In this document: piece by piece, positions 716-32,681 of the stretch | Layout of the letters: each line of letters begins with the position of its first letter | Numbering within the stretch: position 1 is the first letter of the stretch | Assembly (NCBI GenBank): GCA_022361315.1 | Contig: JAKSBB010000756.1 | Location: 1-34,959 of the forward strand | Origin: Desulfobacterales bacterium | Lineage (GTDB): Bacteria; Desulfobacterota; Desulfobacteria; Desulfobacterales; Desulfobacteraceae | Length of the DNA stretch: 34,959 bases | Reading direction: 5' to 3' | Position numbers and translations under genes: made by a program | The notes under the pieces: generated by a model | The model's input: the letters and a program-made list of their open reading frames with translations, nothing else | The model's database searches: none | What the model was told of the DNA's origin: nothing

Positions 716-2122
716 TCAGCAGCTTTCCATATATTCTTTCAGGTGTCGTTCTTCTTCTCCGGATATCAGGGATTGTGGTGCCTGGGCCAGCCGCTCCTCC
801 ACCTGGTTGGCAGCCCTTTCCAGGAGGCTGTCGTTTTCCCCGGAATTGGACCCGCCCCAGTCTGAGATCCGCGGCTGCCAGCAGGATCTGAAATTCTGCA
901 GGGTATTCATATGGGTGAGATAATCCCCCCGGCCCACCTCAACGATCAGGCCTTTTTCCCGTGCGACGGCGGCTTTGGACGCATCCATGCCCTGTCTCAT
1001 ATGCAGCGCCCTGGAAATGATTTCTTCATCAATGATGAATTTCTCGTAACTTGTGGTCATGAAGCTTTCCAGACATCCCATGGCCTCCACCAGGATGTGG
1101 GCGCCGGAAAGCACCGAGGTCAGCCCGCTTGCCATGGATTCCAGGCCGGCCTGGCAGTCCGGTGTTTTGGCATCGGACATGCCGCTAAGGGACCTTGTGG
1201 GCAGGCCGTAGTATTCCCTGCCCATCTGGATGCCGCCTGCATGGATCAGGGGAAGCTCCGGAGGACCGGTGATGAAGGCTGCGGTTTTCATATAGGCCGC
1301 AGTTGAAGCACAGGTGTATACCACAGGGGTTCCCGGATTGATCAGCTGGACCAGGGCCAGGCCGGCCAGGATCTCCGTGTTCTGGAGAATAACGGTACCC
1401 AGTGGATTGATGGGGCCGGTGACCCCGGCCATAATGGCGGGGGGAATGAATATCGGCTGGTTTTGTCCTGCATAGGCAAATAGGGTTTCAATGGCGTCGG
1501 GGCTGAAAGAGAGGGGGCTTAAGGGGTTTACGGCCACACAGATCCAGTGGTTGTCTGAAAAGGGGTGATCCGTATACGGTCTGACAGCCAGGGCCATCAT
1601 TTCAAGTGCCTCGGTGGCTTCTTTTCTATGGCCGGCCATGCCGATCACCGGTTTGTCCGTGTGCTTCAGCACTTCGTAAAGCATCTGGAGATGCTTGGTG
1701 TCCTGGGGAAGGTCAGAAGGCTCCACGGGGAGTGAACCCACCAGGTTGACCACATCAGAGGTCTGGGCCAGCTTCTGCATGTTCACAAAATCCTTGAGCA
1801 CTGAATGTCTGCGGCCGTTTTTCATATCGTGTATGTAAATGGGGCCGATGTTGGGCTGGACCCCCAATGCATCCCTGCCGATAACAATGGTATGTTCGGG
1901 ATTTCTGGCCTGCCATTCAAATTCTTTGGGTGCCCGGGACAGGGCGTCATCAACCAGTGTCTCGGGGATGAATACCCTGTCGTTTTCCACACGGGCGCCA
2001 TGTTTTTTGAAAAGATTCAGTGCATCAGACGAGTGAAAAACCACCCCTGTCCTGGATAGAATTTCCAGTGATGCCCCATGAATGCGGTCAAGTTCCTCCG
2101 GGTTAAATGCGGTCAGTCGCAT
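716..2122 (-). CDS. MttB-superfamily methyltransferase (non-pyrrolysine)
   Basis: A 468-residue member of the trimethylamine methyltransferase superfamily. Characterised non-pyrrolysine members (MtgB, MtpB, MtcB, MtyB) move a methyl group from glycine betaine, proline betaine, carnitine or gamma-butyrobetaine to a cob(I)alamin-carrying protein in the cytoplasm. The family is recognised from the N-terminal start (LDRIHGASLEILSRTGV), the central run around INPLGTVILQNTEILAG, and the C-terminal DCQAGLESM and EKFIIDEEI segments. The frame has no internal amber codon, so no pyrrolysine is encoded. The substrate cannot be read from sequence. It lies 20 bp downstream of an SDR gene on the same strand, and the two are probably one operon driven by the sigma-54 promoter near 3019. 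No corrinoid protein gene is adjacent, unlike classical mtt or mtg operons. Confidence 0.9.
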   Translation of the reverse strand: MRLTAFNPEELDRIHGASLEILSRTGVVFHSSDALNLFKKHGARVENDRVFIPETLVDDALSRAPKEFEWQARNPEHTIVIGRDALGVQPNIGPIYIHDMKNGRRHSVLKDFVNMQKLAQTSDVVNLVGSLPVEPSDLPQDTKHLQMLYEVLKHTDKPVIGMAGHRKEATEALEMMALAVRPYTDHPFSDNHWICVAVNPLSPLSFSPDAIETLFAYAGQNQPIFIPPAIMAGVTGPINPLGTVILQNTEILAGLALVQLINPGTPVVYTCASTAAYMKTAAFITGPPELPLIHAGGIQMGREYYGLPTRSLSGMSDAKTPDCQAGLESMASGLTSVLSGAHILVEAMGCLESFMTTSYEKFIIDEEIISRALHMRQGMDASKAAVAREKGLIVEVGRGDYLTHMNTLQNFRSCWQPRISDWGGSNSGENDSLLERAANQVEERLAQAPQSLISGEEERHLKEYMESC

Positions 2123-2142: not shown

Positions 2143-2919
2143 TTATTCATTGCTTTCCGTAAATCCGTCAACGGCAATGGCCTGTCCGGTGATCTTGTTT
2201 CCGTAATCAGAGCACAGGAAAAGGATGGTTGAACCGATATCCTCAGGCGACACAAAGGTTCTCAGGGCATTGCCCCGGGTGTAGTTCTCCCGGACCTGGG
2301 CTTCGGATATGCCTTTTGCCGCTGCCTCCCCTGCAATCACACGGTCCATCCGTTCACCTTCCACCACACCGGGGCAAACCGCATTCACCCGGATGCCGTA
2401 CCTGCCCTGCTCCAGGGCCAGGGTTTTGGTAAAACCGATGAGTCCCCATTTGGCTGCGGCGTATGGGGATCGCATGGCATAGGCCAGAAACCCTGCCGTG
2501 GATGAAAAATTGATAATGCTGCCGCAGCCCCGGGCTTTGATCCTGGGCACGGCCAGGCGTGCACAGTGGAAGGTACCGTTCAGGTTGACTTCCACGGTCC
2601 TGCGCCATCCTTCGGTGTCAATTTCGTCCACAGTGCCGATGCTGCCCCCGATTCCGGCGCCGTTGATCAGAATATCAAGGCCCTTTAAATGCCGGTCGGC
2701 CGCTTCAAACAGATTCTCCACCTGACCGGGATCGGAAACGTCGCATACCGTGCCGCCTGCCTTTGGATGCGACCCGCTGAAGTCTTTGACGGCAGCGGGA
2801 TCAACATCACAGATATGTACGGTTGCTCCTTCGGCCAGAAACATATCCGCCACAACACGGCAGATACCTGAACCGCCTGCTGTGATCAACACCTTTTTGT
2901 TTTCCATCGAAATCTTCAT
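2143..2919 (-). CDS. SDR-family NAD(P)-dependent oxidoreductase
   Basis: A 258-residue classical short-chain dehydrogenase/reductase. The cofactor loop is TAGGSGIC at residues 13-20, so the last glycine of the usual TGxxxGIG motif is a cysteine. The NGAG motif is near 86-89. The catalytic Ser140, Tyr153 and Lys157 are in place (SPYAAAKWG), and PGVVEGERMD follows in the usual substrate-loop position. A Shine-Dalgarno-like AAAGGA precedes the ATG. It is first in a two-gene operon with the MttB-like gene, so it may oxidise or reduce a carbonyl or hydroxyl on the substrate or demethylated product. That role is inferred from position only. FabG-like or sugar dehydrogenase activity is not excluded. 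Confidence 0.88.
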   Translation of the reverse strand: MKISMENKKVLITAGGSGICRVVADMFLAEGATVHICDVDPAAVKDFSGSHPKAGGTVCDVSDPGQVENLFEAADRHLKGLDILINGAGIGGSIGTVDEIDTEGWRRTVEVNLNGTFHCARLAVPRIKARGCGSIINFSSTAGFLAYAMRSPYAAAKWGLIGFTKTLALEQGRYGIRVNAVCPGVVEGERMDRVIAGEAAAKGISEAQVRENYTRGNALRTFVSPEDIGSTILFLCSDYGNKITGQAIAVDGFTESNE

Positions 2920-3281: not shown

Positions 3282-4775
3282 ATGTCACTGAATATCAGAG
3301 GATTCAACCCCACAGCCCTTAATTCCTATATCGCAGAAGAGATGATCCATTCCCCCGATGATATCCATAAGATCATCAGTCTGCTGTTTGAGCATTCCTA
3401 CGACGGATTCTGCGTTGTCCGGAACGACGGACAGATGATCGTCATCAACAAAGCGGCGGCCGGCTACCTGGATCTTCCCGTTGAAAGCGTTTTGAATAAT
3501 AATGTGAAGCAGGTTCTCAAAGCAGGGCATTATGACCATTCAACCGCGCTGGAAGTGATCCGGAAAAAACGAAAACTGACGCGGATCTATAAAACCCGCA
3601 AGGGCAGAAATATCCTGACCACCAGTATCCCAATTTTCGATGCATCGGGAGGGGTGCTGTACGTTGTTCAGAACGAGCGGGATATTACGCAGATAAAAAA
3701 ACTTGAGCAGCGGTTGAAGCGGGAACGCTCCATTAAGAAAAAGCTTGAACAGGAGATCCGGCAACTTACGGGCAGGTTCCCGGAAAAAGGCGGGATCGTC
3801 AGCATCAGCAAGAAGATGAAGACCGTACTCAACTTCATACGAAGGTGCGCGGAGATGGATCTGGACGCCCTGCTTGTCCAGGGGGAGACCGGGGTGGGCA
3901 AAGGGCTGCTGACCAACTATTACCACACCATCAGCAAATGCTCTCAAAAACCTTTTATCCAGATCAACTGCGCGGCGCTTCCGGAAAATCTCATTGAAGC
4001 GGAGTTGTTCGGATACGAGAAAGGGGCATTCACCGGTGCGGGAAACAAGCCGAAACCAGGCTTGTTTGAACTTGCCGAAGGCGGCATTCTTTTTCTCGAT
4101 GAAATCGGTGAACTGCCGCTATACTCCCAGGCCAAACTCCTGCACTGCCTGGAGGAGAGACGGATATCACGGATAGGCGGCACCCGGTCCCGTAAGGTCA
4201 ATTGCCGTGTCATTGCCGCAACCAATCAGAATCTGAAGCGGATGTGTGAACAGAAAAAATTTCGCCCGGATCTCTATTACAGGCTGAATACAGCCAATAT
4301 AACCATCCCGCCCCTGAGGGAACGGGCAGAAGATATCGCCCCTCTGGCCAGGCACTTCCTCGATCGGTTCAATTCAAAGTACGGATTGAATAAAAAGATT
4401 GCTGCCCAGACCTATCTGGCCCTCGGAAAATATGGTTTCCCGGGGAATGTAAGGGAGTTGTCGAATATCATAAACAACGCTATTATTATGTCCGATGACG
4501 CGCAATTTCTGGACACGATGATTCTTGACCATATCTGTACCCCGGTTGTTTCAGCACCGCCGGCAGAGGGAATGCCCGGTACACAATCCACCCGGCGTCC
4601 CCTCAAAAAGCAGCTTGAGGAGTATGAGAGAATGCTGCTTTTACAGGCCGTCAATGAACATTCGACTGCCATCAAAGCTGCAGGGGTGCTCGGTATCAGT
4701 AAGACCTCCATCATGCGCAAATTAAAAAAATACGGATTGCTGAAAAAGGACCTGAAAACCCGGAGACGTTCCTGA
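3282..4775 (+). CDS. PAS-domain sigma-54-dependent transcriptional activator
   Basis: A 497-residue enhancer-binding protein. Residues about 27-140 form a PAS sensor, followed by a short coiled linker. The AAA+ domain has Walker A GETGVGKG at 201-208, the sigma-54 contact loop GAFTGA at 248-253, Walker B ending FLDE near 271-274, and the arginine-finger region FRPDLYYRL near 327-335. A Fis-type helix-turn-helix ends the protein (AAGVLGISKTSIMRKLKKYG). There is no receiver domain, so control is probably by a ligand or signal on the PAS domain rather than by a histidine kinase. The start follows AGGAGAG. It is transcribed away from the SDR-mttB operon, whose promoter is of sigma-54 type, so local activation of that operon is the simplest reading. 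Confidence 0.93.
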   Translation: MSLNIRGFNPTALNSYIAEEMIHSPDDIHKIISLLFEHSYDGFCVVRNDGQMIVINKAAAGYLDLPVESVLNNNVKQVLKAGHYDHSTALEVIRKKRKLTRIYKTRKGRNILTTSIPIFDASGGVLYVVQNERDITQIKKLEQRLKRERSIKKKLEQEIRQLTGRFPEKGGIVSISKKMKTVLNFIRRCAEMDLDALLVQGETGVGKGLLTNYYHTISKCSQKPFIQINCAALPENLIEAELFGYEKGAFTGAGNKPKPGLFELAEGGILFLDEIGELPLYSQAKLLHCLEERRISRIGGTRSRKVNCRVIAATNQNLKRMCEQKKFRPDLYYRLNTANITIPPLRERAEDIAPLARHFLDRFNSKYGLNKKIAAQTYLALGKYGFPGNVRELSNIINNAIIMSDDAQFLDTMILDHICTPVVSAPPAEGMPGTQSTRRPLKKQLEEYERMLLLQAVNEHSTAIKAAGVLGISKTSIMRKLKKYGLLKKDLKTRRRS

Positions 4776-8385: not shown

Positions 8386-9579
8386 TTACACCTCTATCCG
8401 TTTCAAGCTGTGAGCAAGTACCATTCCCACCACGGCACCTATGGCGAGATTCGAGGCCAGGGTTACGGCCAGGATTACCGTCACCACAAAGATCTCATTC
8501 CGGGTATTCATGTCGATGATGGTCATGGCCAGCTGGCTGCCGGCAAAGATCAGCAGCACCCCAAGGATGGCCATGGGAATGAGAAAGAGGATGGACAGAA
8601 ATCCTGCCCCCAGAATCAGCGGCAGCCCCATCATCAGGCCGCCGATAATCAGATTGGATCCGGCGGTTTTCGCCCCGAACCGGTAATGGGCGGCCAGACC
8701 GCCGGCACCGTGGCACATGGGCATACCGCCGAAAAGAAAACTTAAGACATTGCCTGCCGCCATGGAGACGCACAGGGAGGCATAGGTCATTTTTTCGGCC
8801 GCATCCCCGAAGTAGTCTTTGGACAGGTCTGCCTGGGCAAGCACGGCATTCCCCAGGGTCATGGGCATCTGGGGAAGCACCACTGCGAGAATGACAAAGG
8901 AAAAGTCCGCCCCTGAAGGAAACCCGTGGGGCAGCAGCTCCGGGAAGTAGAGTCCGGGGCTCAGGGCATCCAGCCCCTCTCCGGTGCCGAATACAAGACC
9001 GATGACCATCCCCAGCAGAATAACGATAAGTCCGGCCGGCAGTTTCCGGTTGTTCAGAAACCCCAGGGTGGTGATAATGCCGAGGGTGCCGATGACAAGG
9101 CCGATGGGCAGCGGCCCCAGGGTCTGGAGGGTGAGATAGGGTTCCGCCAGGTTCTTGAGGTGCTGGATCGTGGAGTTCCCCCCCATCATCTCCACGCCTT
9201 TTACCATCAACAGTAACCCTGTGGACACCTGAATGCCCCGGATCACCGCCTTGGGGATATACCGGCCGAACCGGTCGATTGAACCGGTGGCGGCAATCAG
9301 CGCCAGGGTGCCCGCCATGAGCAGGGTTGAGGCCTGGATCTGCTGCACCGACATGGCCGTGGCAATGGCATAGGCCCCGATCACCTTCATGGGTTCCACC
9401 GGCACGGTGAGCCCGTAATAAACGCCGGTGAGGGCATAGAACAACCCCATGGAAAAGAAAACGCCCATGGGGCTGAGGCCGTTGACCATGATCATACCCA
9501 GGGCTAGGGGCAGGATGGTGCCCAGATCCCCGAGGGACCCTGCGAACTCGTTCCTGTTGAACCGGTATTTCGGCATCAT
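8386..9579 (-). CDS. Putative molybdate/sulfate transporter (MOT1 type)
   Basis: A 397-residue integral membrane protein with about ten or eleven hydrophobic segments, of the MOT1/SulP-related family of molybdate or sulfate transporters. The diagnostic N-terminal motif FAGSLGDLGTILPLALG is followed by VPVEPMKVIGAYAIA and later by PQMPMTLGNAVLA and GGMPMCHGAGGLAAHYRFG, all typical of this family. Its start codon overlaps the trmO stop (ATGA), so the two genes are translationally coupled. The molybdoenzyme operon beginning 1.7 kb away gives a plausible reason for molybdate uptake here, although sulfate cannot be excluded by sequence. Confidence 0.87.
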   Translation of the reverse strand: MMPKYRFNRNEFAGSLGDLGTILPLALGMIMVNGLSPMGVFFSMGLFYALTGVYYGLTVPVEPMKVIGAYAIATAMSVQQIQASTLLMAGTLALIAATGSIDRFGRYIPKAVIRGIQVSTGLLLMVKGVEMMGGNSTIQHLKNLAEPYLTLQTLGPLPIGLVIGTLGIITTLGFLNNRKLPAGLIVILLGMVIGLVFGTGEGLDALSPGLYFPELLPHGFPSGADFSFVILAVVLPQMPMTLGNAVLAQADLSKDYFGDAAEKMTYASLCVSMAAGNVLSFLFGGMPMCHGAGGLAAHYRFGAKTAGSNLIIGGLMMGLPLILGAGFLSILFLIPMAILGVLLIFAGSQLAMTIIDMNTRNEIFVVTVILAVTLASNLAIGAVVGMVLAHSLKRIEV

Positions 9580-10055
9580 TTGCTGCTGAACCTGTCGTCT
9601 GAACGTTTATTCTCCGCATCGTTCTGGGTCTGTTCCAGCCAGCCCGATGCCGTCACCTCTTTGACATCAAACCGCGGAACGTAGGGCTTGATATCGATCA
9701 GCGGGGTTTGGTCCAATACGTCAATATCCTCAATCTCCAGTATCCGTCCCTCCCGTGAGCGCAGGCGGACAATGGAAAGTCCGATGGGGTTGGGCCGCCT
9801 GGGGGCCCGGGTGGAGAATAATCCCCGGGGTGTCTTGTCCAGAAAGGGCGTGACCGTCAGGTCGTATCCGTCGGACCTGTGAAACTGGTAGAGCAGGATG
9901 AGGTGGGAAAACCCCTCAATGTCATTCAATCCTTCTTCATAGGCCGGTGCGATATGGATTCTGCCTTTGACGCCTTTGGCTCCCGTGGGCTGGATGGGCA
10001 TGCCTTCAAGGGAGGTGAACGGTGTTTCAATCATGCCGATGGGTGAAATTTCCAT
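9576..10055 (-). CDS. trmO: TrmO-family tRNA m6t6A37 methyltransferase
   Basis: A 159-residue TsaA/TrmO-family protein. Family members methylate t6A at position 37 of tRNA using S-adenosylmethionine through an unusual beta-barrel fold. The sequence opens with the typical ISPIGMIETPF, then IEGFSHLILLYQFHRS, and the signature STRAPRRPNPIGLS, followed by DVLDQTPLIDIKPYVPRFD. It is shorter than E. coli TrmO because it lacks the C-terminal extension. AAGGAGA at 10062-10068 precedes the ATG. It is first in a two-gene operon with the MOT1 transporter. That pairing leaves open whether this copy acts on tRNA or has a role linked to molybdenum. Confidence 0.88.
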   Translation of the reverse strand: MEISPIGMIETPFTSLEGMPIQPTGAKGVKGRIHIAPAYEEGLNDIEGFSHLILLYQFHRSDGYDLTVTPFLDKTPRGLFSTRAPRRPNPIGLSIVRLRSREGRILEIEDIDVLDQTPLIDIKPYVPRFDVKEVTASGWLEQTQNDAENKRSDDRFSSK

Positions 10056-10195: not shown

Positions 10196-11503
10196 ATGTC
10201 AACTGAACATCTGCCTGCAGAAATTCTGACCCGTCTGGGCCGCCAGCTGGAAGACTTTCTTCGCCTGTGGCCCAAACATATGGGGAACGCCGGGTACCTT
10301 GAGAATACCACGGCCAGGCGCAGTGATACCATTCTTTCATATGAGTGGTTTCTGGAATCCCTGGGGGCCGTGGCAGAAAGCGGAGACCCCCCGTCCTTTG
10401 GTGAACTGATTTTAAATAAAGACAACTGGGCGGCCCATTTCATTCTTACCTCCCGCCGTCACCGGGCCAGGGGCGTGACCGGGGAGATGTTCATCGGTTG
10501 CCTGAAAACCCTCGTTCATTCGGTGCTGGAAATGGTCCATGACGGAGATGAGCCCCTGCAGCAGAAACTGCAGGCCGTCTCCTTTATCCGGATGTGGGCG
10601 GATGCCCTGGAGACCATCATCATTCAGGACTGGGCCAATATGTCACAGAGGGAAGCAGACAGTTCCCTGGATCACGCAAACCGCCGCCTGACCCTGGAAA
10701 AGTGCAAGTATGAAAACGTACTGGATTCAATATCAGAACTGGTGTTGATGATCAACGGCAGGGGGGAGGTGCTGGAGGCCAACCGGTCTGCCCGGCGGTA
10801 TTTCGGCACGGATCCATCGGGTACATCAATTCTGGATTTACTGGGAATCGGCGAGGCCGACGGGAACACCGTTTACGCTGAACATACCGCGGAGGCCCCC
10901 CTGGAAGTTTCACTGGGTGATGATCTCTACTTCCACTGTGTCTTTGTTCCCCTTCATGAGATCAGCCTTTCTTCGGACGGGTACCTGGCCGTACTGAAAG
11001 ATATTACGGTCCATGTCAAACAGAGCGAAATGCTGGAGACCCTTGTGTCCGAGAGAACTTCGGAACTGGTGAACAAGAAAAATCAACTGGAGGAGATGAA
11101 CGTCACCCTTCGAACGGTGATGAAAACAGTGGATAAGGAGCGGGAGTCATTCGAACAGAACATCAGCCGCACCGTCAGCCGCACCCTGATTCCCACATTG
11201 CGCACCATCCGGAAGGAAACCTCCGGTGACATCCGCGGCTCATACATCGACATCCTTGAGGATCAATTGTACAAACTCACCCAGGGCGGTGAAACCGGCC
11301 GCCAGGCCATGCTTTTAAAACTGACCCCCATGGAGATGAAGGTCTGCAAATTCATCCAGGCCGGTGTCACCTCCCAGGAAATCGCAGATGCCCTGAATCT
11401 GTCCATCGTCACCATCCAGACCCACCGGCGAAACATACGCCGTAAACTGAATATCCAAAACCGAAAACTAAACCTTCATACCTATCTGAATCAAAACGCA
11501 TAG
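10196..11503 (+). CDS. PAS-LuxR-type transcriptional regulator
   Basis: A 435-residue one-component regulator. Residues about 1-165 are mostly helical and match no family I can name with certainty. A PAS domain follows (about 175-280, VLDSISELVLMINGRGEVLEANRSA), then a long coiled coil from about 280 to 330, and a C-terminal LuxR helix-turn-helix (LTPMEMKVCKFIQAGVTSQEIADALNLS with the recognition helix near VTIQTHRRNIRRKL). The coiled coil and HTH are similar to those of the regulator at 32682, so the two are paralogs in architecture. It lies directly upstream of the transporter-molybdoenzyme-mttB operon on the same strand and is its likely regulator. The ribosome site is weak. Confidence 0.87.
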   Translation: MSTEHLPAEILTRLGRQLEDFLRLWPKHMGNAGYLENTTARRSDTILSYEWFLESLGAVAESGDPPSFGELILNKDNWAAHFILTSRRHRARGVTGEMFIGCLKTLVHSVLEMVHDGDEPLQQKLQAVSFIRMWADALETIIIQDWANMSQREADSSLDHANRRLTLEKCKYENVLDSISELVLMINGRGEVLEANRSARRYFGTDPSGTSILDLLGIGEADGNTVYAEHTAEAPLEVSLGDDLYFHCVFVPLHEISLSSDGYLAVLKDITVHVKQSEMLETLVSERTSELVNKKNQLEEMNVTLRTVMKTVDKERESFEQNISRTVSRTLIPTLRTIRKETSGDIRGSYIDILEDQLYKLTQGGETGRQAMLLKLTPMEMKVCKFIQAGVTSQEIADALNLSIVTIQTHRRNIRRKLNIQNRKLNLHTYLNQNA

Positions 11504-11542: not shown

Positions 11543-11566
11543 AATGGGTATATAAAAATACCCATT
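11543..11566. promoter_or_regulatory. Palindrome upstream of the transporter operon
   Basis: Perfect 9-bp arms AATGGGTAT (11543-11551) and ATACCCATT (11558-11566) flank ATAAAA. The centre contains TATAAA, a possible -10 box without a good -35, as expected for an activated promoter. It could be the operator of the LuxR-type protein encoded just upstream. A weak terminator is the alternative, because CTTTTT lies 7 bp downstream. Confidence 0.45.
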
Positions 11567-11706: not shown

Positions 11707-12759
11707 ATGGAAAACACCATGCAAAATACCACGGGATTAAATGCCCGGGAACAATATGAGGCCCGGGCATTAAGCTTCGCCAAAGTGGGGATCGGGTTTG
11801 CCGCAGCATCCGGTATGCTGTGGGGGCTGGATACGGTCATCCTGGGACTGGCCTTTGCCCTGATTCCGTTCAACGTATCGGAACCCGTATCCCTGGTCCT
11901 GGCCGCCGGGGTGGCAAATGCCGCACTCCACGACGGGTTCGGCACGATATGGCTGGCACTGTATAACGGATTGATCAAGGGAAAAATTGTTGAATACTTC
12001 AGGGTGATCCGCACCAAACCGGGATTTTTTATTCTCCTGGCGGGATTTTGCGGCGGCCCCATCGCCATGGGGTGTTTTGTCATCAGTATCAGTATGGCCG
12101 GCACATATGCCGTTTGTATTTCCGCCACCTACCCGATTTTAGGCTCCCTTGCCGCCGCTGTGTTTCTGAAAGAGAAAATCAACAAACGGGTGTGGATCGG
12201 TATGATTGTGGCCGTTGCCGGTGCCATTTATCTCTCCTATTCACCCCCGGAAGGCGATTTGCCCAATAATTTTTATCTGGGGCTGGTCATTGGTCTGGCA
12301 GCAGGACTGGGCTGGGGATTGGAAGGGGTATTCGCCTCCTACGGCATGGATCTGGTGGACGATGAGGTGGCTGTCGGGCTCAAGCTTGCCGCCCAGTTCG
12401 TTCTTTATTTCGTCTTTGTCCTGCCGGTCTTTGGGGCCGTGGTCTTCTTTTTTGATATTTTTTCAAGTCCGGACATCGGCAAGCTGCTACCCATCATGGC
12501 CATGGCCGGTCTGGCCGGCGGCATGACCATGCTGTGCTGGTATAAGGCTTTCGTCACCACAGGGGTGAGCCGGGCCATGACCTTTAACATCACCTACGCC
12601 CTGTGGTCCATCGTGTGGAGCCTGCTCTTTTCCGCCCTGGGTATCATCGAGTATTCCATCAGTCCTGAGCTTGTCATCGGGGCCGTGGTTGTGACCGCCG
12701 GTGCTATACTGGTGGTGGCAAATCCCAAAGAGTTGTTGAATCTGAGATCCCTGGACTGA
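11707..12759 (+). CDS. EamA/DMT-family transporter
   Basis: A 351-residue membrane protein with two EamA-like halves and about ten hydrophobic segments, of the drug/metabolite transporter superfamily. The start at 11707 follows AAGGAGATCAA; the longer open frame from 11578 has no such site and a non-membrane-like leader. Conserved features include GMLWGLDTVILGLAF near the start, SATYPILGSLAAAVFLKEKI at the end of the first half, and LCWYKAFVTTGVSRAMTFNITYALWS in the second half. It opens the operon with the molybdoenzyme and mttB genes, 41 bp upstream of the next gene. Uptake or export of the methylated substrate or product is inferred from that position. Confidence 0.85.
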   Translation: MENTMQNTTGLNAREQYEARALSFAKVGIGFAAASGMLWGLDTVILGLAFALIPFNVSEPVSLVLAAGVANAALHDGFGTIWLALYNGLIKGKIVEYFRVIRTKPGFFILLAGFCGGPIAMGCFVISISMAGTYAVCISATYPILGSLAAAVFLKEKINKRVWIGMIVAVAGAIYLSYSPPEGDLPNNFYLGLVIGLAAGLGWGLEGVFASYGMDLVDDEVAVGLKLAAQFVLYFVFVLPVFGAVVFFFDIFSSPDIGKLLPIMAMAGLAGGMTMLCWYKAFVTTGVSRAMTFNITYALWSIVWSLLFSALGIIEYSISPELVIGAVVVTAGAILVVANPKELLNLRSLD

Positions 12760-12800
12760 TAAGACATCATACAATTACATCGTGTAAAAGGAGAAAGCAA

Positions 12801-13082
12801 ATGGGTACAGCCGTATTACCTCTGAAATACAGTCTGGTCAAATATATGAACGGGAAGGCCAAGGTCACTGCCAAAGAATTGTTTGACAGCGCAACCCCCC
12901 GTTACGGAAACGAAAAACAACTCTCCCTGGCCAATGTGGAGAAGCATCTGTCCGCATTACGGGCGGCCGGGCTTATCGATATGGTGGACGTCGCCTTCAA
13001 TGGTGACGGAGATCTTAACTGCTCATACAAACTTACGGATTACGGTCAAAGCCGGCTGAAGAAATATGTCCCCCAAGGATAG
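12801..13082 (+). CDS. Small winged-helix-like protein
   Basis: A 93-residue protein that I cannot place in a named family. Its pattern suggests a winged helix-turn-helix: an N-terminal helix, VTAKELFDSA, a probable recognition helix around LSLANVEKHLSALRAAGLI, and a C-terminal strand pair ending in YKLTDYGQSRLKKYV, a segment typical of the wing and last helix of many small DNA-binding proteins. AAAGGAGAAAG precedes the ATG. Its 3' end overlaps the chaperone gene by 17 bp, so it is part of the operon. A local regulator is plausible. A role in assembly of the molybdoenzyme is also possible. Confidence 0.7.
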   Translation: MGTAVLPLKYSLVKYMNGKAKVTAKELFDSATPRYGNEKQLSLANVEKHLSALRAAGLIDMVDVAFNGDGDLNCSYKLTDYGQSRLKKYVPQG

Positions 13083-13704
13083 TATAAAGGATAATAAGGT
13101 TTCAGAACCGGCCGCCATGGAAAAAGGGCATGATCCGGCCCCCGGAGAATGCCCTCTGACCCCGGGCTGTATCGCGGGGTTACGGGACTTCTTCGCCGCC
13201 GTTGACGCCGCCGCCCTGCAAGCCGCCTATGCCGCCACCAACAACTTTCCATTGGACAAGGTGGACTGGCAGCAGGTGGAGTATGATTTCAACCGGCTCT
13301 TTGTGGGGCCGGCAGCGCCGGCAGCTCCGCCCTATGCATCGGTGTATTTGGATGAAAACGCCGATCTCATGGGAAAATCCACCCTCGGGATCCGCCAACT
13401 TTACAACTCACTTGGGATGCAGGTACCAGACCCGGGGGCGCTGCCCGACGATTTCATCTCATATGAGCTGGATGCCCTCCTGGTGATCCTGGGGCAGCAA
13501 CCGCTGGATATGAAGGCATTGAAATCTCTGGTTTCGAGGCACATGGGGGCATGGGTGCCGGCATTCTGCGAACGATGCAGGCAGGCGGACAGGGTGCCGC
13601 AGCCTGTCCGCCACATGGTAGACCTGCTGGAATCCCTGGTCCACACCCTGTCACAATCAATAACCAACCCAGTACCAGATTCAAACTCAAAGGGGGATAG
13701 GTAA
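13066..13704 (+). CDS. TorD/DmsD-family molybdoenzyme chaperone
   Basis: A 212-residue all-helical protein of the TorD family. These cytoplasmic chaperones bind the apo-form of DMSO-reductase-family enzymes and hold it ready for cofactor insertion. The motif YDFNRLFVGP is followed by PPYASVYLDEN, then LMGKSTLGIRQLYNSLGM, all standard for the family, and by DFISYELDALLVIL. It starts inside the previous gene and ends 4 bp before the catalytic subunit gene, as expected for a dedicated chaperone. The enzyme it serves has no Tat signal, so its task here is presumably cofactor loading rather than export proofreading. A start at 13117 is possible but lacks a ribosome site. Confidence 0.88.
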   Translation: MSPKDSIKDNKVSEPAAMEKGHDPAPGECPLTPGCIAGLRDFFAAVDAAALQAAYAATNNFPLDKVDWQQVEYDFNRLFVGPAAPAAPPYASVYLDENADLMGKSTLGIRQLYNSLGMQVPDPGALPDDFISYELDALLVILGQQPLDMKALKSLVSRHMGAWVPAFCERCRQADRVPQPVRHMVDLLESLVHTLSQSITNPVPDSNSKGDR

Positions 13705-13708
13705 ACCC

Positions 13709-15925
13709 ATGGGTATCAATGATCAGATGGAATGGCTTAACGAGGGGCTGTCAAAGATCCGGCAGCTGGCCTCCCGTGTCAATTTGCCGCCCAAGCTTTT
13801 AATCCCTGAAAAAAAGCCGGCCCGGGTGTTTGATGAGACTCAGTATCAGGTTTTCAGAAATGCCTGCCCCCGGAATTGCTATGATACCTGCAGTATCAAG
13901 ACCTATGTCCGGGACGGGGTGGTCGAATTCATAGAGGGGGATGGCGGTTCCAGCTATACGGACGGCGGCCTCTGTGTAAAGGGGTATTCATATCCCCGCA
14001 GACAGTACAGCCCGGACCGGATCAAGTATCCCATGATCCAGGACAAAAGGGGCTCGGGAAAGTGGCGGCGTATTTCCTGGGACAGGGCAATGGATATCAT
14101 TGCGAAAAAGATTCTGGAAATCAAAGATAAGGACGGATCTCTGCTCGGACTGGCGCTGTCCAAATTATCCGGCCACCACGGGGTCACCAACCATGCCGTT
14201 GAAGGCATGATGAGTTCCCTGGGGTACACCACACGATTTGTGGGCACCCCCTGCTGGCCCGCCGGGATTGATGCCCAGACCTACGACATGGGCGACATCT
14301 GGTGCAACGACCCCGAAGATATGAGTGAGGCGAAGTATATCATTCTCTGGGGGGTAAACCCTGCCTGGTGTGCGGTTCATTCTATGAAATACATCATGGC
14401 GGCCCGGCAGAGAGGGGCAAAGATCGTCAGTATTGATCCGGTATTCACCCAGACCAGCGCCAAAAGCGATGAATACTGGCAGCCCCATCCCGGCACCGAC
14501 GGGGCCCTGGCCCTGGGGATGGCAAGGCACATCCTGGACCAGGGCCTTACGGATGCAGATTTCGTTTCCGAAAATACCGTGGGATTCGATGCCTTCAGCA
14601 CCTATTTGCGTGACCATATCGGGGTTGAATGGGCGGCGGAAAAAACCGGAATTCCGGCGGACCGCATCAGGGCCGTGGCAGAGGAATTTGCCCAGGCAAG
14701 TCCGGGGACCATCTGGATCGGTTATGGGCTGCAGCGCCATACCAACGGTGGGGCAACCGTCCGGGCCATAGATGCCCTTGTGGCCATGTGCGGCCACATC
14801 GGCAAGGTGGGGGGCGGTGCCCGGTATGCCCACCTGCGCACCTGGGGATTCAACTATCATGCGGAAACGCAGTCGCCGCCGGAAGGGTCTGTGGGGGTGC
14901 CCGGGAACACGGAGCCGGGACCTGGTTATTCAGACCGGCATTTGAACATCAACAAAACGGCCCGGTCTATTCTGGAGGCTGATGATCCGAAGATCCGTAT
15001 GCTCTGGGTGTCATGCCGGAATGTATTTGCCCAGGACTTTGACCGGAACCTGATGGAAAAGGCCTTTGAAAAACTGGAACTGGTGGTCAGTGTGGAGCAG
15101 TTTTTCACCGAAACCGTGAAATACTCGGACCTGGTGCTTCCGGTGACCACCTTATTTGAGGAGTTCAGTGTCAATGTTTCCTACTGGCACTATTGGCTGG
15201 CTATAAACGAGGCCGCAGTTAAGCCCATGTACGAGGCCAAATCCAACCTGGAAATTGCAGCACTGCTGAGCCGGAAAATAAACGAATTGCGTCCGGGATC
15301 CTGTACCTTTCCCCAGCAGGCAGATGACCGTGAATGGACCATCAAGGAGTTTAACCCGGACCTGCTGGAGGCCTTCGGGCTGGAGAGCTGGGAAACCCTG
15401 CGGTCCGGTCCGGTGAAGATGAAGATGGACAGTTCCGCAGGCTGGCATGACAACCGGTTCATGACGCCCTCGGGGAAGTACGAGTTTGCCTCCGAACTAT
15501 GCGCCCGGGACGGATATGATGCGCTGCCCGTTTTCAAGGAAGGGCGAAAGGCCTACGATAAGTACAGGCTGCTCACCCCCCACTCGAAATTCGGTATCCA
15601 TTCACAGTTTAACAATCTGGACTGGGTGGCCTCCTTTAACAAGGAACCCTATGTATATATCCATCCGACCCTGGCGCAGCACAAAGGGATTTCCGACCTT
15701 GACCGTATCCGGGTGTTCAATGCCTTGGGGACGCTTACGGCAAAGGTGAAAGTCTCCCGGAACGTTCCGGAAAAGACCATATTGATGTACGAAGCCTGGT
15801 TCAAAGATTTTGATTTTAACGTCAACACATTGGTGGACGACAGGGAAGCGGACATGGGCAGCAAAAAAACAGGCGCCCCGGGTGTGGCCCTCCATGATCA
15901 GTTTGCAGATATTGAGAAAGTCTAA
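13709..15925 (+). CDS. Molybdopterin oxidoreductase, DMSO-reductase family catalytic subunit
   Basis: A 738-residue catalytic subunit of the DMSO reductase superfamily, with bis-MGD cofactor and one [4Fe-4S] cluster. The cluster ligands are Cys53, Cys57, Cys61 (CPRNCYDTC) and Cys89. The expected molybdenum-ligand region reads VGTPCWPAGID, with Cys182 the likely ligand, where true DMSO and TMAO reductases use serine. The C-terminal molydopterin-dinucleotide domain starts near LLTPHSKFGIHSQF. The N-terminus has no twin-arginine signal, so the enzyme should stay in the cytoplasm. It is followed by ferredoxin-type and membrane-anchor subunits, forming a DmsABC- or Psr/Phs-like complex. Substrate unknown: candidates are an S- or N-oxide, a sulfur compound, or a methylated-amine intermediate suggested by the mttB gene in the operon. 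Confidence 0.92.
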   Translation: MGINDQMEWLNEGLSKIRQLASRVNLPPKLLIPEKKPARVFDETQYQVFRNACPRNCYDTCSIKTYVRDGVVEFIEGDGGSSYTDGGLCVKGYSYPRRQYSPDRIKYPMIQDKRGSGKWRRISWDRAMDIIAKKILEIKDKDGSLLGLALSKLSGHHGVTNHAVEGMMSSLGYTTRFVGTPCWPAGIDAQTYDMGDIWCNDPEDMSEAKYIILWGVNPAWCAVHSMKYIMAARQRGAKIVSIDPVFTQTSAKSDEYWQPHPGTDGALALGMARHILDQGLTDADFVSENTVGFDAFSTYLRDHIGVEWAAEKTGIPADRIRAVAEEFAQASPGTIWIGYGLQRHTNGGATVRAIDALVAMCGHIGKVGGGARYAHLRTWGFNYHAETQSPPEGSVGVPGNTEPGPGYSDRHLNINKTARSILEADDPKIRMLWVSCRNVFAQDFDRNLMEKAFEKLELVVSVEQFFTETVKYSDLVLPVTTLFEEFSVNVSYWHYWLAINEAAVKPMYEAKSNLEIAALLSRKINELRPGSCTFPQQADDREWTIKEFNPDLLEAFGLESWETLRSGPVKMKMDSSAGWHDNRFMTPSGKYEFASELCARDGYDALPVFKEGRKAYDKYRLLTPHSKFGIHSQFNNLDWVASFNKEPYVYIHPTLAQHKGISDLDRIRVFNALGTLTAKVKVSRNVPEKTILMYEAWFKDFDFNVNTLVDDREADMGSKKTGAPGVALHDQFADIEKV

Positions 15926-15936
15926 GGAGACCTCCC

Positions 15937-16530
15937 ATGGCTGAACAGAAAGCCTTTCTGGTAAACGCGGACCGGTGCATCGGCTGTTATACCTGTGCGA
16001 TGGCCTGCAAGAGTTACAACGGCCTGGAAAGTGATGTGGCCTGGCGGCAGATTTACCCCCTGGCTGAAAATCATTTTCCCTATGATGACAGGGCCTTTTA
16101 TTCACTGGCATGCAACCATTGTGCAGCTCCGGTATGTGAGGCGGTTTGCCCCACCGGGGCCTATAAAAAACGGCGGGATGACGGGATTGTGATCCATGAT
16201 CAGGATGCCTGTATCGGATGCACCAATTGTATCCGGGCCTGTCCCTTCGGTGCCCCGAAGTACAATAAAAAACTGAAGAAGGCCGAGAAATGCAGCCTTT
16301 GCCACCACCGCCTTGATGCCGGACTGGCGCCGGCCTGTATCCAGGCCTGCCCGGTACGGGCCATTGAACTGGTGGACCTGAATACACTGAATCGGGAAAT
16401 GTTTGATCAGGACACGCCGGAGGCCCCGAAGCTGCTAGAGACGCCCCCCGGCTTTCCCGACGGGGAGGGGCTTTATCCCTCCGTCCGGTTTGTTTTGCCG
16501 ACACTTCCCAGAATGATGATAATGAGGTGA
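15937..16530 (+). CDS. Four-cluster ferredoxin subunit (DmsB type)
   Basis: A 197-residue iron-sulfur electron-transfer subunit. Sixteen cysteines fall in four groups: CIGCYTCAMAC near residue 16, CNHCAAPVCEAVCP, CIGCTNCIRACP, and CSLCHHRLDAGLAPACIQACP, matching four [4Fe-4S] clusters. These carry electrons between the quinone-linked membrane anchor and the molybdenum subunit. Like the catalytic subunit it has no export signal. AAGGAGACCTCCC precedes the ATG. It begins 11 bp after the catalytic gene and ends 4 bp before the anchor gene, so a three-subunit complex is well supported. Confidence 0.93.
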   Translation: MAEQKAFLVNADRCIGCYTCAMACKSYNGLESDVAWRQIYPLAENHFPYDDRAFYSLACNHCAAPVCEAVCPTGAYKKRRDDGIVIHDQDACIGCTNCIRACPFGAPKYNKKLKKAEKCSLCHHRLDAGLAPACIQACPVRAIELVDLNTLNREMFDQDTPEAPKLLETPPGFPDGEGLYPSVRFVLPTLPRMMIMR

Positions 16531-16534
16531 TGAT

Positions 16535-17332
16535 ATGCGATCCGTTCTATATGGCAGGCATCTGACCCTGGTGGCCCTGACGGTGACCACCCAGGCTGCG
16601 GCGGGTCTTGCTGTTTTCAAAGTACTCAGGCTGTTGGCTGGTCACGGAGCCGGTGGTGTTGCTGACCTTGTGCTCCTCTTTATGCTCGCATTCTCCGGTG
16701 CCGTGGTGTCGGTATTCCACCTGGGGCACCCCCAAAAAATGGCCACCGCATTCATGAATTTACGCTCCTCCTGGCTCAGCAGGGAAGGGCTCCTCTTGTC
16801 CCTGTTTCTGGGGGTGTCGTTTTTCCAGATGGTGTTGGGGCTTTCCCATGGATTGTTTTTCAGCAGTTGCCTGGCCCTGGTTGGTATCGGGTTCCTGTTC
16901 ACCCAGGGGATGGTGTACGTGGTCCCGGGTTTTTCAGCCATGCGACATGGCGCGCCTGTGGTGCTGTTTTTCTTTTCAAGTCTGACCACGGGGATCTGCC
17001 TGTCCGCCTGGTTTGGGGATGCGGCCTGGCGTGAGCTGCTCGCCCGGATCGGATCCATGGTGTTTGCCTCCGGTTTTGTGGGGGGGCTGATGCTTCCCCT
17101 GATATGGAAATCCGGGACCGTTGTGGTGTCGGATACGGCCAGGGCCTGGGGGCGCTCCCCCCTGTACTACCTGTGGATGGGATTGGGATATGGGTTTCCA
17201 CTTTTGATTGTCTTTTCACTAAAGACACTGCCGGTGTGGCTGTGCCTGTTTGTCAGTGTTGCAGAATGCACGGGCCGGATCCTGTTTTTTACGCAAACCC
17301 GGCATACTTCTGATTACATCGGGCATTTGTAA
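16535..17332 (+). CDS. DmsC-family membrane anchor subunit
   Basis: A 265-residue integral membrane protein with eight hydrophobic segments, of the DMSO reductase anchor (DmsC) family. Family members bind menaquinol and pass electrons to the ferredoxin subunit. The family motif VFHLGHPQKMATAFMNLRSSWLSRE is visible in two adjoining pieces after the second membrane segment (VFHLGHP near 65, and NLRSSWLSRE). It ends with GHL and a TAA stop that also forms the first unit of a short tandem repeat. It is a little shorter than E. coli DmsC. With the catalytic subunit lacking Tat export, the soluble domains would sit on the cytoplasmic face. Confidence 0.87.
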   Translation: MRSVLYGRHLTLVALTVTTQAAAGLAVFKVLRLLAGHGAGGVADLVLLFMLAFSGAVVSVFHLGHPQKMATAFMNLRSSWLSREGLLLSLFLGVSFFQMVLGLSHGLFFSSCLALVGIGFLFTQGMVYVVPGFSAMRHGAPVVLFFFSSLTTGICLSAWFGDAAWRELLARIGSMVFASGFVGGLMLPLIWKSGTVVVSDTARAWGRSPLYYLWMGLGYGFPLLIVFSLKTLPVWLCLFVSVAECTGRILFFTQTRHTSDYIGHL

Positions 17333-17387
17333 AATGACCATCCCGGTCACTTGTAATAGTGACCATCCCGGGCATTTGTAAAATTTT
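17321..17387 (+). repeat. Three-unit tandem repeat between anchor and mttB genes
   Basis: Three imperfect units of 24, 25 and 18 bp start at 17321, 17345 and 17370. Each begins GG(G/T)CA(T/C)TTGTAA, and the first two end GACCATCCC. Unit one includes the last codons and stop of the anchor gene. Unit two contains a 7-bp hairpin, GGTCACT (17345-17351) with AGTGACC (17358-17364). It could moderate mRNA stability or translation of the mttB gene downstream. Confidence 0.7.
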
Positions 17388-17410
17388 AAGCTATAAAAGG
17401 AGAGGCGATT

Positions 17411-18832
17411 ATGCCGAACTTGATTACGAAAGAGCAAATCGAAACAATATATGGTCAGGCCGCAGAGGTATTGGCCACCGTCGGGGTTGAATTTGAGATG
17501 GAAAGCGCTCTGGCACTTTTCAGGACACACGGGTTCCGGGTAGAGGACAAACGGGTATATATTTCCCGGGACCTTCTGGACGACACCCTGAAGCTGATGC
17601 CTGCCCATACATATGAGGCCACAGGGACAAAACGGCTGGTTGCCGCCTCCCCCTTTTCCAATTCCCCCATGATCCTGGATGATGCCACCGGTGAAAGCCG
17701 GCGGGGAACTGTTGAGGATGCCGTCAGGATGTACCGGCTGGCCGAGACCTGTGAGCTGTATGAGACCGTGAACCCCGGGGTGGTGGATCCCGTGGACAAC
17801 GACAGTGAGGACCCATACATTTCCCAGATCGCCATGCTTTTGAAATACTCGGATAAATTTCCCAACCTCGGTCTGCGGGCCACCAGGTCCAATACCAGGA
17901 ACGGGGATGTCTACGGCAGCGCCAAAAGGGCCATACAACTGATCAAAGAAATTAAGGGAACCAATGACGGCCCTGTGATGGCCCAGGGAATCTGCCCGAA
18001 TCCCCCGCTGGCTTACGATGAGGAAAGCCTGATTAATCTGACGGTGCTTGTGGAGGAGGAACAGGATATCACCATCTTTCCCTGCACCCTCTCATACATG
18101 ACCGGCCCTGAAAGCCTGATGGGCATCGTCATCCATGATGTGGCCGTCTCCCTGGCCGGTGCCGTTTACGTTCAACTGCTCAAACCCGGTACACCGGTGG
18201 GGTTCAGCTGCTTTTCCACCATGACGGATATGCGCACCATGCAGCCCGTCTATGCCAGCCCGGAATACCTTAACGTTCAGATCATGTTTTACGAAGTCTG
18301 TCTCCACTTCGGCCTGAACTGCGCTGTGTGCGGCTGTTTTGCCGACGGTATTAAAAACGACTACCAGGGTGGATTTGAATCCTGTATGACCGCTATCGCC
18401 CCCTATTTCATGACGGAAGTGGACGAGATCTGGTGCTATCCCGGCCTCATGGCGGCCTTTGCCGGCGGCAGTTTTAACAAGATCATATTTGACGAGGAAC
18501 TGCTGATCAATTGCAACCGCCTGCTGCAGGGACTGAACCTGTCCTTTGATCCGAAACTGACGGAGAAACTGGCCAAAGCAGCGGAGACCCGGAGTTTTCT
18601 TGCCATCGGCGATGTGGGGATTTACAGGCAGGAACAACGGATTACCCCTGTGTTTAACAAAAAGGGGATCGATCCCAACGCTTCCGCTGCTTCCGCTGCT
18701 GCCCAGAGCCTTATCGATCTGAATGCGGAAAAAATCATAGAAAAACGGTGTGCATCATATGCGCTTCCCGAACGCAGCGAATCCCAACAGGCGTTGCTCC
18801 AGAAGTATCTTCCTTCCCAGTGTAAATATTAG
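17411..18832 (+). CDS. MttB-superfamily methyltransferase (non-pyrrolysine), second copy
   Basis: A 473-residue trimethylamine-methyltransferase-superfamily protein. It shares with the copy at 716 the same length, the N-terminal TKEQIETIYGQAAEVLATVGVEF-type helix, the central SLAGAVYVQLLKPGTPV run and the C-terminal DYQGGFESCM and KIIFDEELL blocks, but overall divergence looks large, so the substrates may differ. No in-frame amber codon is present. AAAAGGAGAGG precedes the ATG. It is the last gene of the run from 11707, 78 bp after the anchor gene with the repeat between them. Family chemistry predicts transfer of a methyl group from a quaternary or tertiary amine to a corrinoid protein, but no such protein is encoded in the window. 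Confidence 0.88.
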   Translation: MPNLITKEQIETIYGQAAEVLATVGVEFEMESALALFRTHGFRVEDKRVYISRDLLDDTLKLMPAHTYEATGTKRLVAASPFSNSPMILDDATGESRRGTVEDAVRMYRLAETCELYETVNPGVVDPVDNDSEDPYISQIAMLLKYSDKFPNLGLRATRSNTRNGDVYGSAKRAIQLIKEIKGTNDGPVMAQGICPNPPLAYDEESLINLTVLVEEEQDITIFPCTLSYMTGPESLMGIVIHDVAVSLAGAVYVQLLKPGTPVGFSCFSTMTDMRTMQPVYASPEYLNVQIMFYEVCLHFGLNCAVCGCFADGIKNDYQGGFESCMTAIAPYFMTEVDEIWCYPGLMAAFAGGSFNKIIFDEELLINCNRLLQGLNLSFDPKLTEKLAKAAETRSFLAIGDVGIYRQEQRITPVFNKKGIDPNASAASAAAQSLIDLNAEKIIEKRCASYALPERSESQQALLQKYLPSQCKY

Positions 18833-32515: not shown

Positions 32516-32558
32516 CATTGTGACCCATTGTGCGCAAAACATCAAGAAAAAACAATGG
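32516..32558. promoter_or_regulatory. Repeated CATTGTG motif in divergent region
   Basis: CATTGTG occurs at 32516-32522 and 32526-32532, ten bases apart, and the inverse ACAATGG of CCATTGT (32525-32531) at 32552-32558. The region lies between the divergent PAS protein and PAS-LuxR genes and may bind a regulator. Confidence 0.25.
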
Positions 32559-32622
32559 TTGAGCGATTCGCATCAAAATTGGGGGTGGGATTTTCCGTAT
32601 GCCTTGTCAGGCAAGTCCGGAG

Positions 32623-32651
32623 TTTACACAGATAAAAATCTAGGGTTTAAT
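32623..32651 (+). promoter_or_regulatory. Sigma-70-type promoter for PAS-LuxR regulator
   Basis: TTTACA (32623-32628), 17 bp and TTTAAT (32646-32651) lie 30 bp before the start at 32682. Confidence 0.45.
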
Positions 32652-32681
32652 GGGGGATACGAAAAATTAGGAAACCACAGC

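What the first reader, a model, noticed from the sequence alone, without database searches (positions are those of the whole stretch)
11707..18832. Seven-gene operon joining a cytoplasmic molybdoenzyme complex to a non-pyrrolysine MttB
EamA transporter, winged-helix protein, TorD chaperone, molybdopterin subunit, ferredoxin subunit, DmsC-type anchor and MttB-like methyltransferase are closely spaced and on one strand. I know of no described pathway that pairs these. A possible scheme: the permease imports a methylated S- or N-compound, the quinol-linked complex reduces or oxidises it inside the cell, and MttB removes a methyl group. The route would tie methyl-group supply to respiration.
Basis: partly seen in the sequence, partly recalled or inferred. 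Interest (0 to 1): 0.8.

Follow-up and report, generated by a model that had tools for sequence, protein, structure and literature searches.

The report
Inward-turned molybdoenzyme operon with methyltransferase
A bacterium related to sulfate reducers carries one operon in which a membrane molybdenum enzyme that is normally exported has lost its export signal and seems turned to face the cell interior, merged with an importer and a methyl-removing enzyme of the quaternary-amine type; the merger looks real but was seen intact only here, and its substrate is unknown.

Summary
The seven genes are confirmed: one strand, gaps of at most 78 bases, wHTH and TorD overlapping by 17. They merge two modules. 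PAS-LuxR, TorD, MopB, FeS and DmsC form a stand-alone, mostly Tat-exported module in relatives; 0 of 41 such loci show EamA, wHTH or MttB within the stretch held. EamA plus wHTH is a recurrent pair, usually beside MttB-family, choline-lyase or microcompartment genes. Three results support a cytoplasmic, co-regulated complex. The Tat signal is decayed. DmsC's positive charge changed sides: +6, against -8 to -1 in 38 Tat-bearing relatives. A likely LuxR operator, GGGTA-N8-TACCC, follows luxR in 26 of 32 relatives and stands here before EamA. MttB belongs to a clade with extra invariant cysteines; four modelled glycine-betaine contacts of MtgB are replaced. Against generality: no other intact copy was found; L004 keeps only a DmsC remnant before MttB. 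Relatives of a corrinoid protein, THF methyltransferase or activase were not found in the window. The substrate, and its sharing by both enzymes, are inferred.

The parts
8389..9579 (-). MOT1-type molybdate transporter gene, divergent neighbour (association only)
   Evidence: Pfam MFS_MOT1 162.7 bits, cut-off 30
10196..11503 (+). PAS-LuxR regulator, part of the ancestral molybdoenzyme module
   Evidence: Pfam GerE and PAS_8; a LuxR relative (over 100 bits) lies near 32 of 41 related MopB genes
11543..11566 (.). 9-bp-arm inverted repeat with core GGGTA-N8-TACCC (11546-11563), likely LuxR operator
   Evidence: exact core within 360 bases at or after the luxR end in 26 of 32 relatives, once in 516,543 other bases; only match in the window at up to 1 mismatch, which by itself is not above chance (mean 0.94 in shuffles)
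11707..12759 (+). EamA-family permease, likely importer of a quaternary-amine-type compound
   Evidence: Pfam EamA; contexts of relatives
12801..13082 (+). small winged-helix protein paired with EamA
   Evidence: HTH_20 below cut-off; a relative lies beside EamA in 17 of 18 stretches of one phylum
13066..13704 (+). TorD/NarJ-type chaperone, overlapping wHTH by 17 bases
   Evidence: Pfam Nitrate_red_del 84.5 bits
13709..15925 (+). molybdopterin catalytic subunit with decayed Tat signal
15937..16530 (+). DmsB-type 4Fe-4S subunit
   Evidence: Pfam Fer4_11 90.2 bits; NCBIfam DMSO_dmsB 157.4 bits, under its 214.1 cut-off
16535..17332 (+). DmsC-type quinone anchor with reversed charge pattern
   Evidence: Pfam DmsC 26.3 bits
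17311..17381 (+). three diverged copies of a 22-base unit over the DmsC stop and the gap before MttB
17411..18832 (+). non-pyrrolysine MttB-superfamily methyltransferase of a cysteine-rich clade

Best explanation
This is a merged operon. An ancestral periplasmic respiratory module (PAS-LuxR, operator, TorD, MopB, FeS, DmsC) took up an import-and-demethylation cassette (EamA and wHTH placed between the operator and torD, mttB after dmsC). MopB then lost its Tat signal and DmsC was reoriented, so that the complex now faces the cytoplasm, where the imported compound and MttB are. Most likely one imported methylated compound of betaine, choline or sulfonium type, or its oxide, is handled by both: the complex exchanges electrons between menaquinol and an oxidised form of it (reduction is the likelier direction), and MttB moves a methyl group to a corrinoid protein encoded elsewhere, from which it goes to tetrahydrofolate. 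Shown: gene order, coupling, Tat decay, charge reversal, shared operator, homologies. Inferred: cytoplasmic location in the cell, quinol use, the methyl acceptor, the substrate, and that both enzymes act in one pathway. My odds are about 0.85 for merger, relocation and co-regulation, and about 0.4 for a shared substrate.
For: Spacing and overlap. Module structure: 41 relatives, LuxR 32, TorD 38, FeS 41, DmsC 41, EamA, wHTH and MttB 0. Tat: 39 of 41 loci have RRx[FLMVIA]; L048 lacks it and L049 cannot be told (contig end). Among the 120 listed protein hits 6 lack it, 3 of them (P0001, P0002, P0103) with full-length different N termini and 3 with shortened ones. Tat loss needs at least 3 changes on a tree of 128 rows. 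DmsC K+R on the subunit-B side minus the other side: window +6, Tat-less L048 +6, 38 Tat-bearing relatives -8 to -1, mean -3.3. Operator in 26 of 32 relatives and before EamA here. EamA relatives: CutC in 8 and CutF-like ALDH in 9 of 9 Desulfospira-order stretches; of 18 stretches in the other phylum 6 have MttB-family genes, 5 CutC, 4 other BMC genes, 3 none. EamA-wHTH-MttB of this MttB clade's nearest outgroup in L019 and L020. L004 keeps a DmsC end before MttB, 56% like the window's against at most 44% for the other DmsCs tested. The window's MopB and P0002 share 6 changes at sites conserved in at least 97% of the other 118. In print: EamA between mthB and mthA in the choline cluster of E. 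limosum (PMC12155760, passages).
Against: The intact arrangement was found once. 18 of 18 sulfate-reducer-type MttB loci lack it (short contigs in part; L008 has a distant molybdopterin gene, 27% identical, about 9 kb away), and so do 41 of 41 MopB loci. No corrinoid protein, THF methyltransferase or activase relative in the window. The Tat-less L048 has no EamA or MttB in its stretch and no operator in 1,057 bases upstream, so relocation can happen without MttB. Six of 32 relatives lack the exact operator. Loop borders for the charge count were set by eye on the window's DmsC (result kept with borders moved by -2 to +4) and the relatives are not independent. The MopB model was poor (pLDDT 55) and was not used. 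The six MttB-family genes beside EamA in the other phylum are not of this MttB's clade (they match the window's second MttB better).
Confidence: 0.45

Rival explanations
1. Same operon and relocation, but two functions: MttB feeds methyl groups to tetrahydrofolate, and the complex is a cytoplasm-facing reductase for a different acceptor (or an oxidase for a different donor) that takes part only in balancing electrons of the same growth mode.
For: Common operator and tight spacing need only co-regulation. MopB scores are split between several reductase and dehydrogenase families and reach no NCBIfam cut-off. The module stands alone in 41 relatives.
Against: The relocation to MttB's compartment and shared changes at conserved MopB sites with P0002 suggest a new substrate inside the cell, though P0002's own neighbours are not known.
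Confidence: 0.27
2. Co-location without function: mttB, solitary and variable in context in related genomes, landed behind dmsC and is carried along.
For: 18 of 18 related loci show MttB in other contexts; the intact pairing was found once; a three-copy repeat lies at the DmsC-MttB junction.
Against: EamA and wHTH, which accompany the MttB of L019 and L020, are in the same operon; wHTH and torD overlap; the operator precedes EamA; the DmsC remnant beside MttB in L004 suggests that the pairing is older than this genome.
Confidence: 0.18
3. The complex is an ordinary exported DmsABC-type reductase whose start codon was misplaced, or the window is a wrong assembly.
For: Most relatives are Tat-exported; a single contig was seen.
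Against: No earlier start in the frame; P0002 shows the same loss; DmsC charge is reversed as well; the modules are interleaved, with overlapping genes.
Confidence: 0.04
4. The complex is a quinone-linked formate dehydrogenase that finishes oxidation of MttB-derived methyl groups.
For: Would complete methyl oxidation; NCBIfam Fdh-alpha scores 237 bits.
Against: Far under that model's 666-bit cut-off; invariant Cys182 is followed by Trp-Pro, not by the His of formate dehydrogenases (motif recalled).
Confidence: 0.06

Closest known systems
DmsABC / PsrABC-type molybdoenzyme complexes with TorD/DmsD chaperone
   Same: Catalytic, 4Fe-4S and DmsC-type subunits with chaperone; PDB sequence relatives include DMSO, TMAO, thiosulfate and perchlorate-type reductases
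   Different: No Tat signal, DmsC charge reversed, all NCBIfam cut-offs missed, controlled together with EamA and MttB
MtgB and other non-pyrrolysine MttB-superfamily methyltransferases
   Same: Fold: model of P0121, nearly identical to the window's MttB, matches MtgB 9yce with TM 0.76 at 24% identity; no pyrrolysine
   Different: Four modelled glycine-betaine contacts of MtgB (Y94, N199, R309, H345; PMC6855144, passages) align with S83, C195, A305, C342; extra invariant cysteines
mth choline demethylation cluster of Eubacterium limosum (PMC12155760)
   Same: MttB-superfamily gene with an EamA permease in one cluster
   Different: There with corrinoid protein, THF methyltransferase and kinase and, in the passages read, no molybdoenzyme; here the reverse
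Choline TMA-lyase (cutC) microcompartment loci
   Same: Relatives of EamA, in part with wHTH, lie beside cutC
   Different: No CutC or microcompartment relative in the window
Cytoplasm-facing nitrate reductase NarGHI with NarJ (recalled)
   Same: Chaperone-dependent molybdoenzyme on the inner side of the membrane
   Different: DmsC-type anchor of another family, and the catalytic subunit is of the DmsA/PsrA kind

Membership tests
MttB superfamily (PF06253) | Pfam MTTB above gathering score, TIM-barrel fold | tested here: met
   158.3 bits against 25; P0121 model with pLDDT 83 matches 9yce, 2qne, 4yyc, 7xcl
MttB superfamily (PF06253) | Methyl transfer to a cognate corrinoid protein | not testable with these tools
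   No partner relative found in the window; activity needs experiment
Pyrrolysine TMA methyltransferase MttB | In-frame amber codon for pyrrolysine | tested here: not met
   No internal stop; Phe310 at the X position of 7xcl; TIGR02369 113 of 525 bits
Glycine betaine methyltransferase MtgB | Y94, N199, R309, H345 (modelled contacts, PMC6855144) | tested here: not met
   S83, C195, A305, C342 by one pairwise HMMER alignment, gaps near two of the sites
DMSO/selenate reductase DmsA/YnfE (TIGR02166) | NCBIfam cut-off 777.7 bits | tested here: not met
   261.5 bits
DmsABC-type complex, broad sense | Molybdopterin domains, 4Fe-4S subunit and DmsC anchor in one operon | tested here: met
DmsABC-type complex, broad sense | Tat twin-arginine signal on the catalytic subunit | tested here: not met
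Formate dehydrogenase alpha | (Sec/Cys)-His at the metal ligand (recalled) and NCBIfam cut-off | tested here: not met
   Cys182-Trp-Pro; 237 of 666 bits
EamA transporters (PF00892) | Pfam gathering score | tested here: met
   43.7 against 28.2 bits
TorD/NarJ chaperones (PF02613) | Pfam gathering score | tested here: met
   84.5 against 22.2 bits
HTH_20 winged helix (wHTH gene) | Pfam gathering score | tested here: not met
   20.3 against 27 bits

The most novel reading that the evidence does not exclude
A one-compound pathway that joins respiration and methylotrophy: an imported S-, N- or As-oxide of a methylated compound (for example dimethylsulfoxonium propionate or an arsenobetaine-like oxide) is reduced inside the cell by an inverted, quinol-linked molybdoenzyme, and an MttB with a cysteine-lined, possibly metal-binding active site demethylates the product. 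It would also be a case of a DmsABC-type complex turned around in evolution, with Tat loss and anchor inversion occurring together in more than one lineage.
Probability: 0.2. Interest if true: 0.88.

Novelty: new variant of a known kind. Interest (0 to 1): 0.62.

Why it matters
If the complex is truly inverted, it shows that a Tat-exported respiratory molybdoenzyme can be moved to the cytoplasm through loss of one signal plus redistribution of charges on its anchor, and it gives a sequence test for this (window and L048 against 38 relatives). If MttB and the complex share a substrate, sulfate-reducer relatives would have a route that links methyl-group supply to quinol respiration. The predicted operator, permease and regulator give direct ways to find the substrate of a large, uncharacterised MttB clade.

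Tried and rejected
Contig-length comparison: no contig length was shared between the 120 listed MttB hits and the 120 listed MopB hits (120 of 4,442) or the 46 EamA hits. The test is weak: the window's own MttB is hidden in the cluster of P0121 (contig 2,093), so it fails its positive control; no weight given.

The same holds for the three EamA relatives of 75-81%.

MopB structure: pLDDT 55, not searched. The Mo ligand could not be fixed: Cys182 is 120 of 120, but the profile alignment puts it one column from PsrA Cys173 (ligand role recalled).

Viral contigs: no MttB relative. Plasmids: 183 records, best rows 22-24% identity, not pursued.

Papers: listings only; opened were PMC12155760 (abstract and outline, passages, Discussion), PMC9842639 (passages) and PMC6855144 (passages). 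(MttB superfamily, DMSO reductase, molybdopterin): 0 papers; 1 paper, on chlordecone, not opened. (DmsC, NrfD, Tat signal, cytoplasmic, topology): 0.

Cysteine reading tempered: C195 also occurs in 6 of 8 other MttB-family proteins tested and C225 in 1 of 8; L020 has Ala at 342. C297, C342 and C368 occur in none of those 8.

Rows dropped: L141 left out of the charge count (+4) because the extraction returned the end of its FeS gene; L044 (G059, 3.4 kb contig), G1349 and G1313 not examined, so 41 of 44 MopB places were. L049 counted as without Tat, but its gene is cut by the contig end and has stops. Two of 21 EamA genomes (G1013, G1149) and two second copies were not looked at. In the large genome searches only a few MopB candidates per genome were scored, so misses are possible.
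Full report
Observation. The seven genes lie on the + strand at the stated coordinates with gaps of 41, -17, 4, 11, 4 and 78 bases. Pfam and NCBIfam support each name except the small winged-helix protein, which stays under its Pfam cut-off. No NCBIfam cut-off was passed by the molybdoenzyme or MttB proteins (for example 261.5 of 777.7 bits for DmsA/YnfE, 113 of 525 for pyrrolysine MttB). No whole genome is held for the window, so its source is known only through relatives: the MttB matches proteins of Desulfospira, Desulfotignum, Desulfamplus and related MAGs.

Two modules. The MopB family has 4,442 database hits (120 listed). I examined 41 of 44 genomic places found. In the stretches held, up to 8 kb, a PAS-LuxR relative occurs in 32 of 41, TorD in 38, FeS in 41, DmsC in 41 and EamA, wHTH or either MttB of the window in 0. 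The regulator 10196-11503 therefore belongs to this module. The EamA and wHTH genes form another recurrent pair. Nine of 291 genomes of the Desulfospira order have a distant EamA (27-30%); 8 of the 9 stretches hold cutC and all 9 a CutF-like ALDH gene, a wHTH relative in 3 (CutC confirmed by NCBIfam in L033 and L106). Of 348 genomes of the phylum of the Eubacteriaceae MAG, 21 have EamA at E <= 1e-30; in 18 stretches fetched, wHTH lies beside it in 17, MttB-family genes occur in 6, cutC in 5, other microcompartment genes in 4 and none of these in 3. Two MttB neighbourhoods (L094, L096) have an APH-family kinase. L019 and L020 hold EamA-wHTH-MttB with an MttB 43-44% identical to the window's. 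In print, an EamA permease lies between mthB and mthA in the E. limosum choline cluster, with the transporters MttP and LicB as its top hits (PMC12155760, passages).

The merger. In the window EamA and wHTH stand between luxR and torD, and mttB follows dmsC. A 9-bp-arm inverted repeat at 11543-11566 has the core GGGTA-N8-TACCC. Palindromes were first listed in relatives, then this core was counted: 26 of 32 relatives with LuxR upstream have it within 360 bases at or after the luxR end (29 with at most 1 mismatch), against 1 exact match in 516,543 other bases. It is absent upstream of the 9 MopB loci without LuxR and from the MttB and EamA loci tested. In the window alone a match with up to 1 mismatch is expected by chance; the weight comes from position and conservation. 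The simplest reading is that the molybdoenzyme's regulator now controls the whole operon.

Relocation. The N terminus of MopB aligns with Tat signals of relatives, but the RR motif and hydrophobic core are gone, in P0002 as well. Of 120 listed proteins 6 lack the motif; three of these are merely shortened, leaving P0001, P0002 and P0103; L048 is a further case. On a tree of 128 rows the loss needs at least three changes, with P0001 and P0002 together at full support on a long stem; L048 is a long branch and its place is unsure. If MopB stays inside, the anchor must turn round. Counting K+R in loops on the FeS-facing side (topology of DmsC recalled) minus the other side gives +6 for the window and +6 for Tat-less L048, but -8 to -1 for 38 Tat-bearing relatives (mean -3.3); moving loop borders by -2 to +4 keeps the separation, and leaving out both termini gives +2 and +3 against -9 to -2. 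L141 was dropped for a failed extraction, and L049 (-4) has an unreadable MopB start. The relatives are not independent, but two separate Tat-less lineages agree.

MttB. A scan of 84,980 genome assemblies gave 20 loci. In none of the 18 sulfate-reducer-type loci is the operon present; several contigs are short, and L008 has a distant molybdopterin gene about 9 kb away. Wider searches returned only genomes already seen (3 of 242 and 12 of 86). L004 has 36 residues of a DmsC end just before mttB, 56% identical to the window's DmsC and at most 44% to the others, with nothing else of the module recognisable: a sign that dmsC-mttB once existed there too. The modelled sequence (P0121, nearly identical to the window's) folds like MtgB (TM 0.76). 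The four modelled glycine-betaine contacts of MtgB (PMC6855144, passages) align with S83, C195, A305 and C342. In the 120 listed relatives C225, C297, C342 and C368 are 120 of 120, C471 118, C195 and C309 115, C304 111 and C307 102; C195, C225, C307 and C342 sit at or just after strand ends of the barrel. C195 is, however, common in other MttB-family members (6 of 8). A cysteine-lined, perhaps metal-binding pocket is thus possible, not shown.

MopB specificity. Cys182 (GTPCWPAG) is invariant and is my candidate Mo ligand. The window and P0002 share E80G, Y153L, F157H, A250S, N363H and A571M at sites conserved in at least 97% of the other 118, consistent with a changed substrate.

How it most likely works. 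EamA imports a methylated compound. Under LuxR control the inward-facing complex exchanges electrons between quinol and an oxidised form of it, and MttB passes a methyl group to a corrinoid protein encoded elsewhere. No relative of the corrinoid protein, THF methyltransferase or activase queries was found in the window. The choice of substrate and the direction are inference. The rivals are separate but co-regulated functions, or co-location without function.

Verdict. The strongest new results are the co-ordinated Tat loss and anchor charge reversal and the inherited operator; the weakest point is that the intact operon is known from one contig.

Noticed in passing
716-2122 (-), 2143-2919 (-), 3282-4775 (+): A second MttB-family gene (25% identical to the first) beside a short-chain dehydrogenase and a PAS sigma-54 activator: possibly another methylated-compound cassette.
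   Followed up: partly
8386-10055 (-): MOT1 molybdate transporter and TrmO-like gene divergent from luxR; molybdate supply next to a molybdoenzyme operon.
   Followed up: no
whole window: TAG is depleted: 268 matches on both strands against a shuffled mean of 513.
   Followed up: no
17311-17381: Three diverged copies of a 22-base unit spanning the DmsC stop codon; may mark the junction with mttB.
   Followed up: no
32520-33575 (+): A second LuxR-type gene, 23-24% identical to the operon's regulator.
   Followed up: no
L048:3996-5114 (-): The Tat-less MopB operon of L048 is followed by a Cys/Met-metabolism PLP enzyme gene; a hint towards sulfur compounds.
   Followed up: partly
L096:1806-9570: EamA-wHTH with MttB-family and B12-binding genes near microcompartment genes and PylB-like and ATP-grasp genes.
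   Followed up: partly
P0103: A third MopB lineage with a full-length N terminus without Tat motif; context unknown.
   Followed up: no
L020:2451-14318: Dorea MAG: microcompartment genes, B12-binding protein, EamA-wHTH-MttB and a corrinoid activase-like gene in one run.
   Followed up: partly
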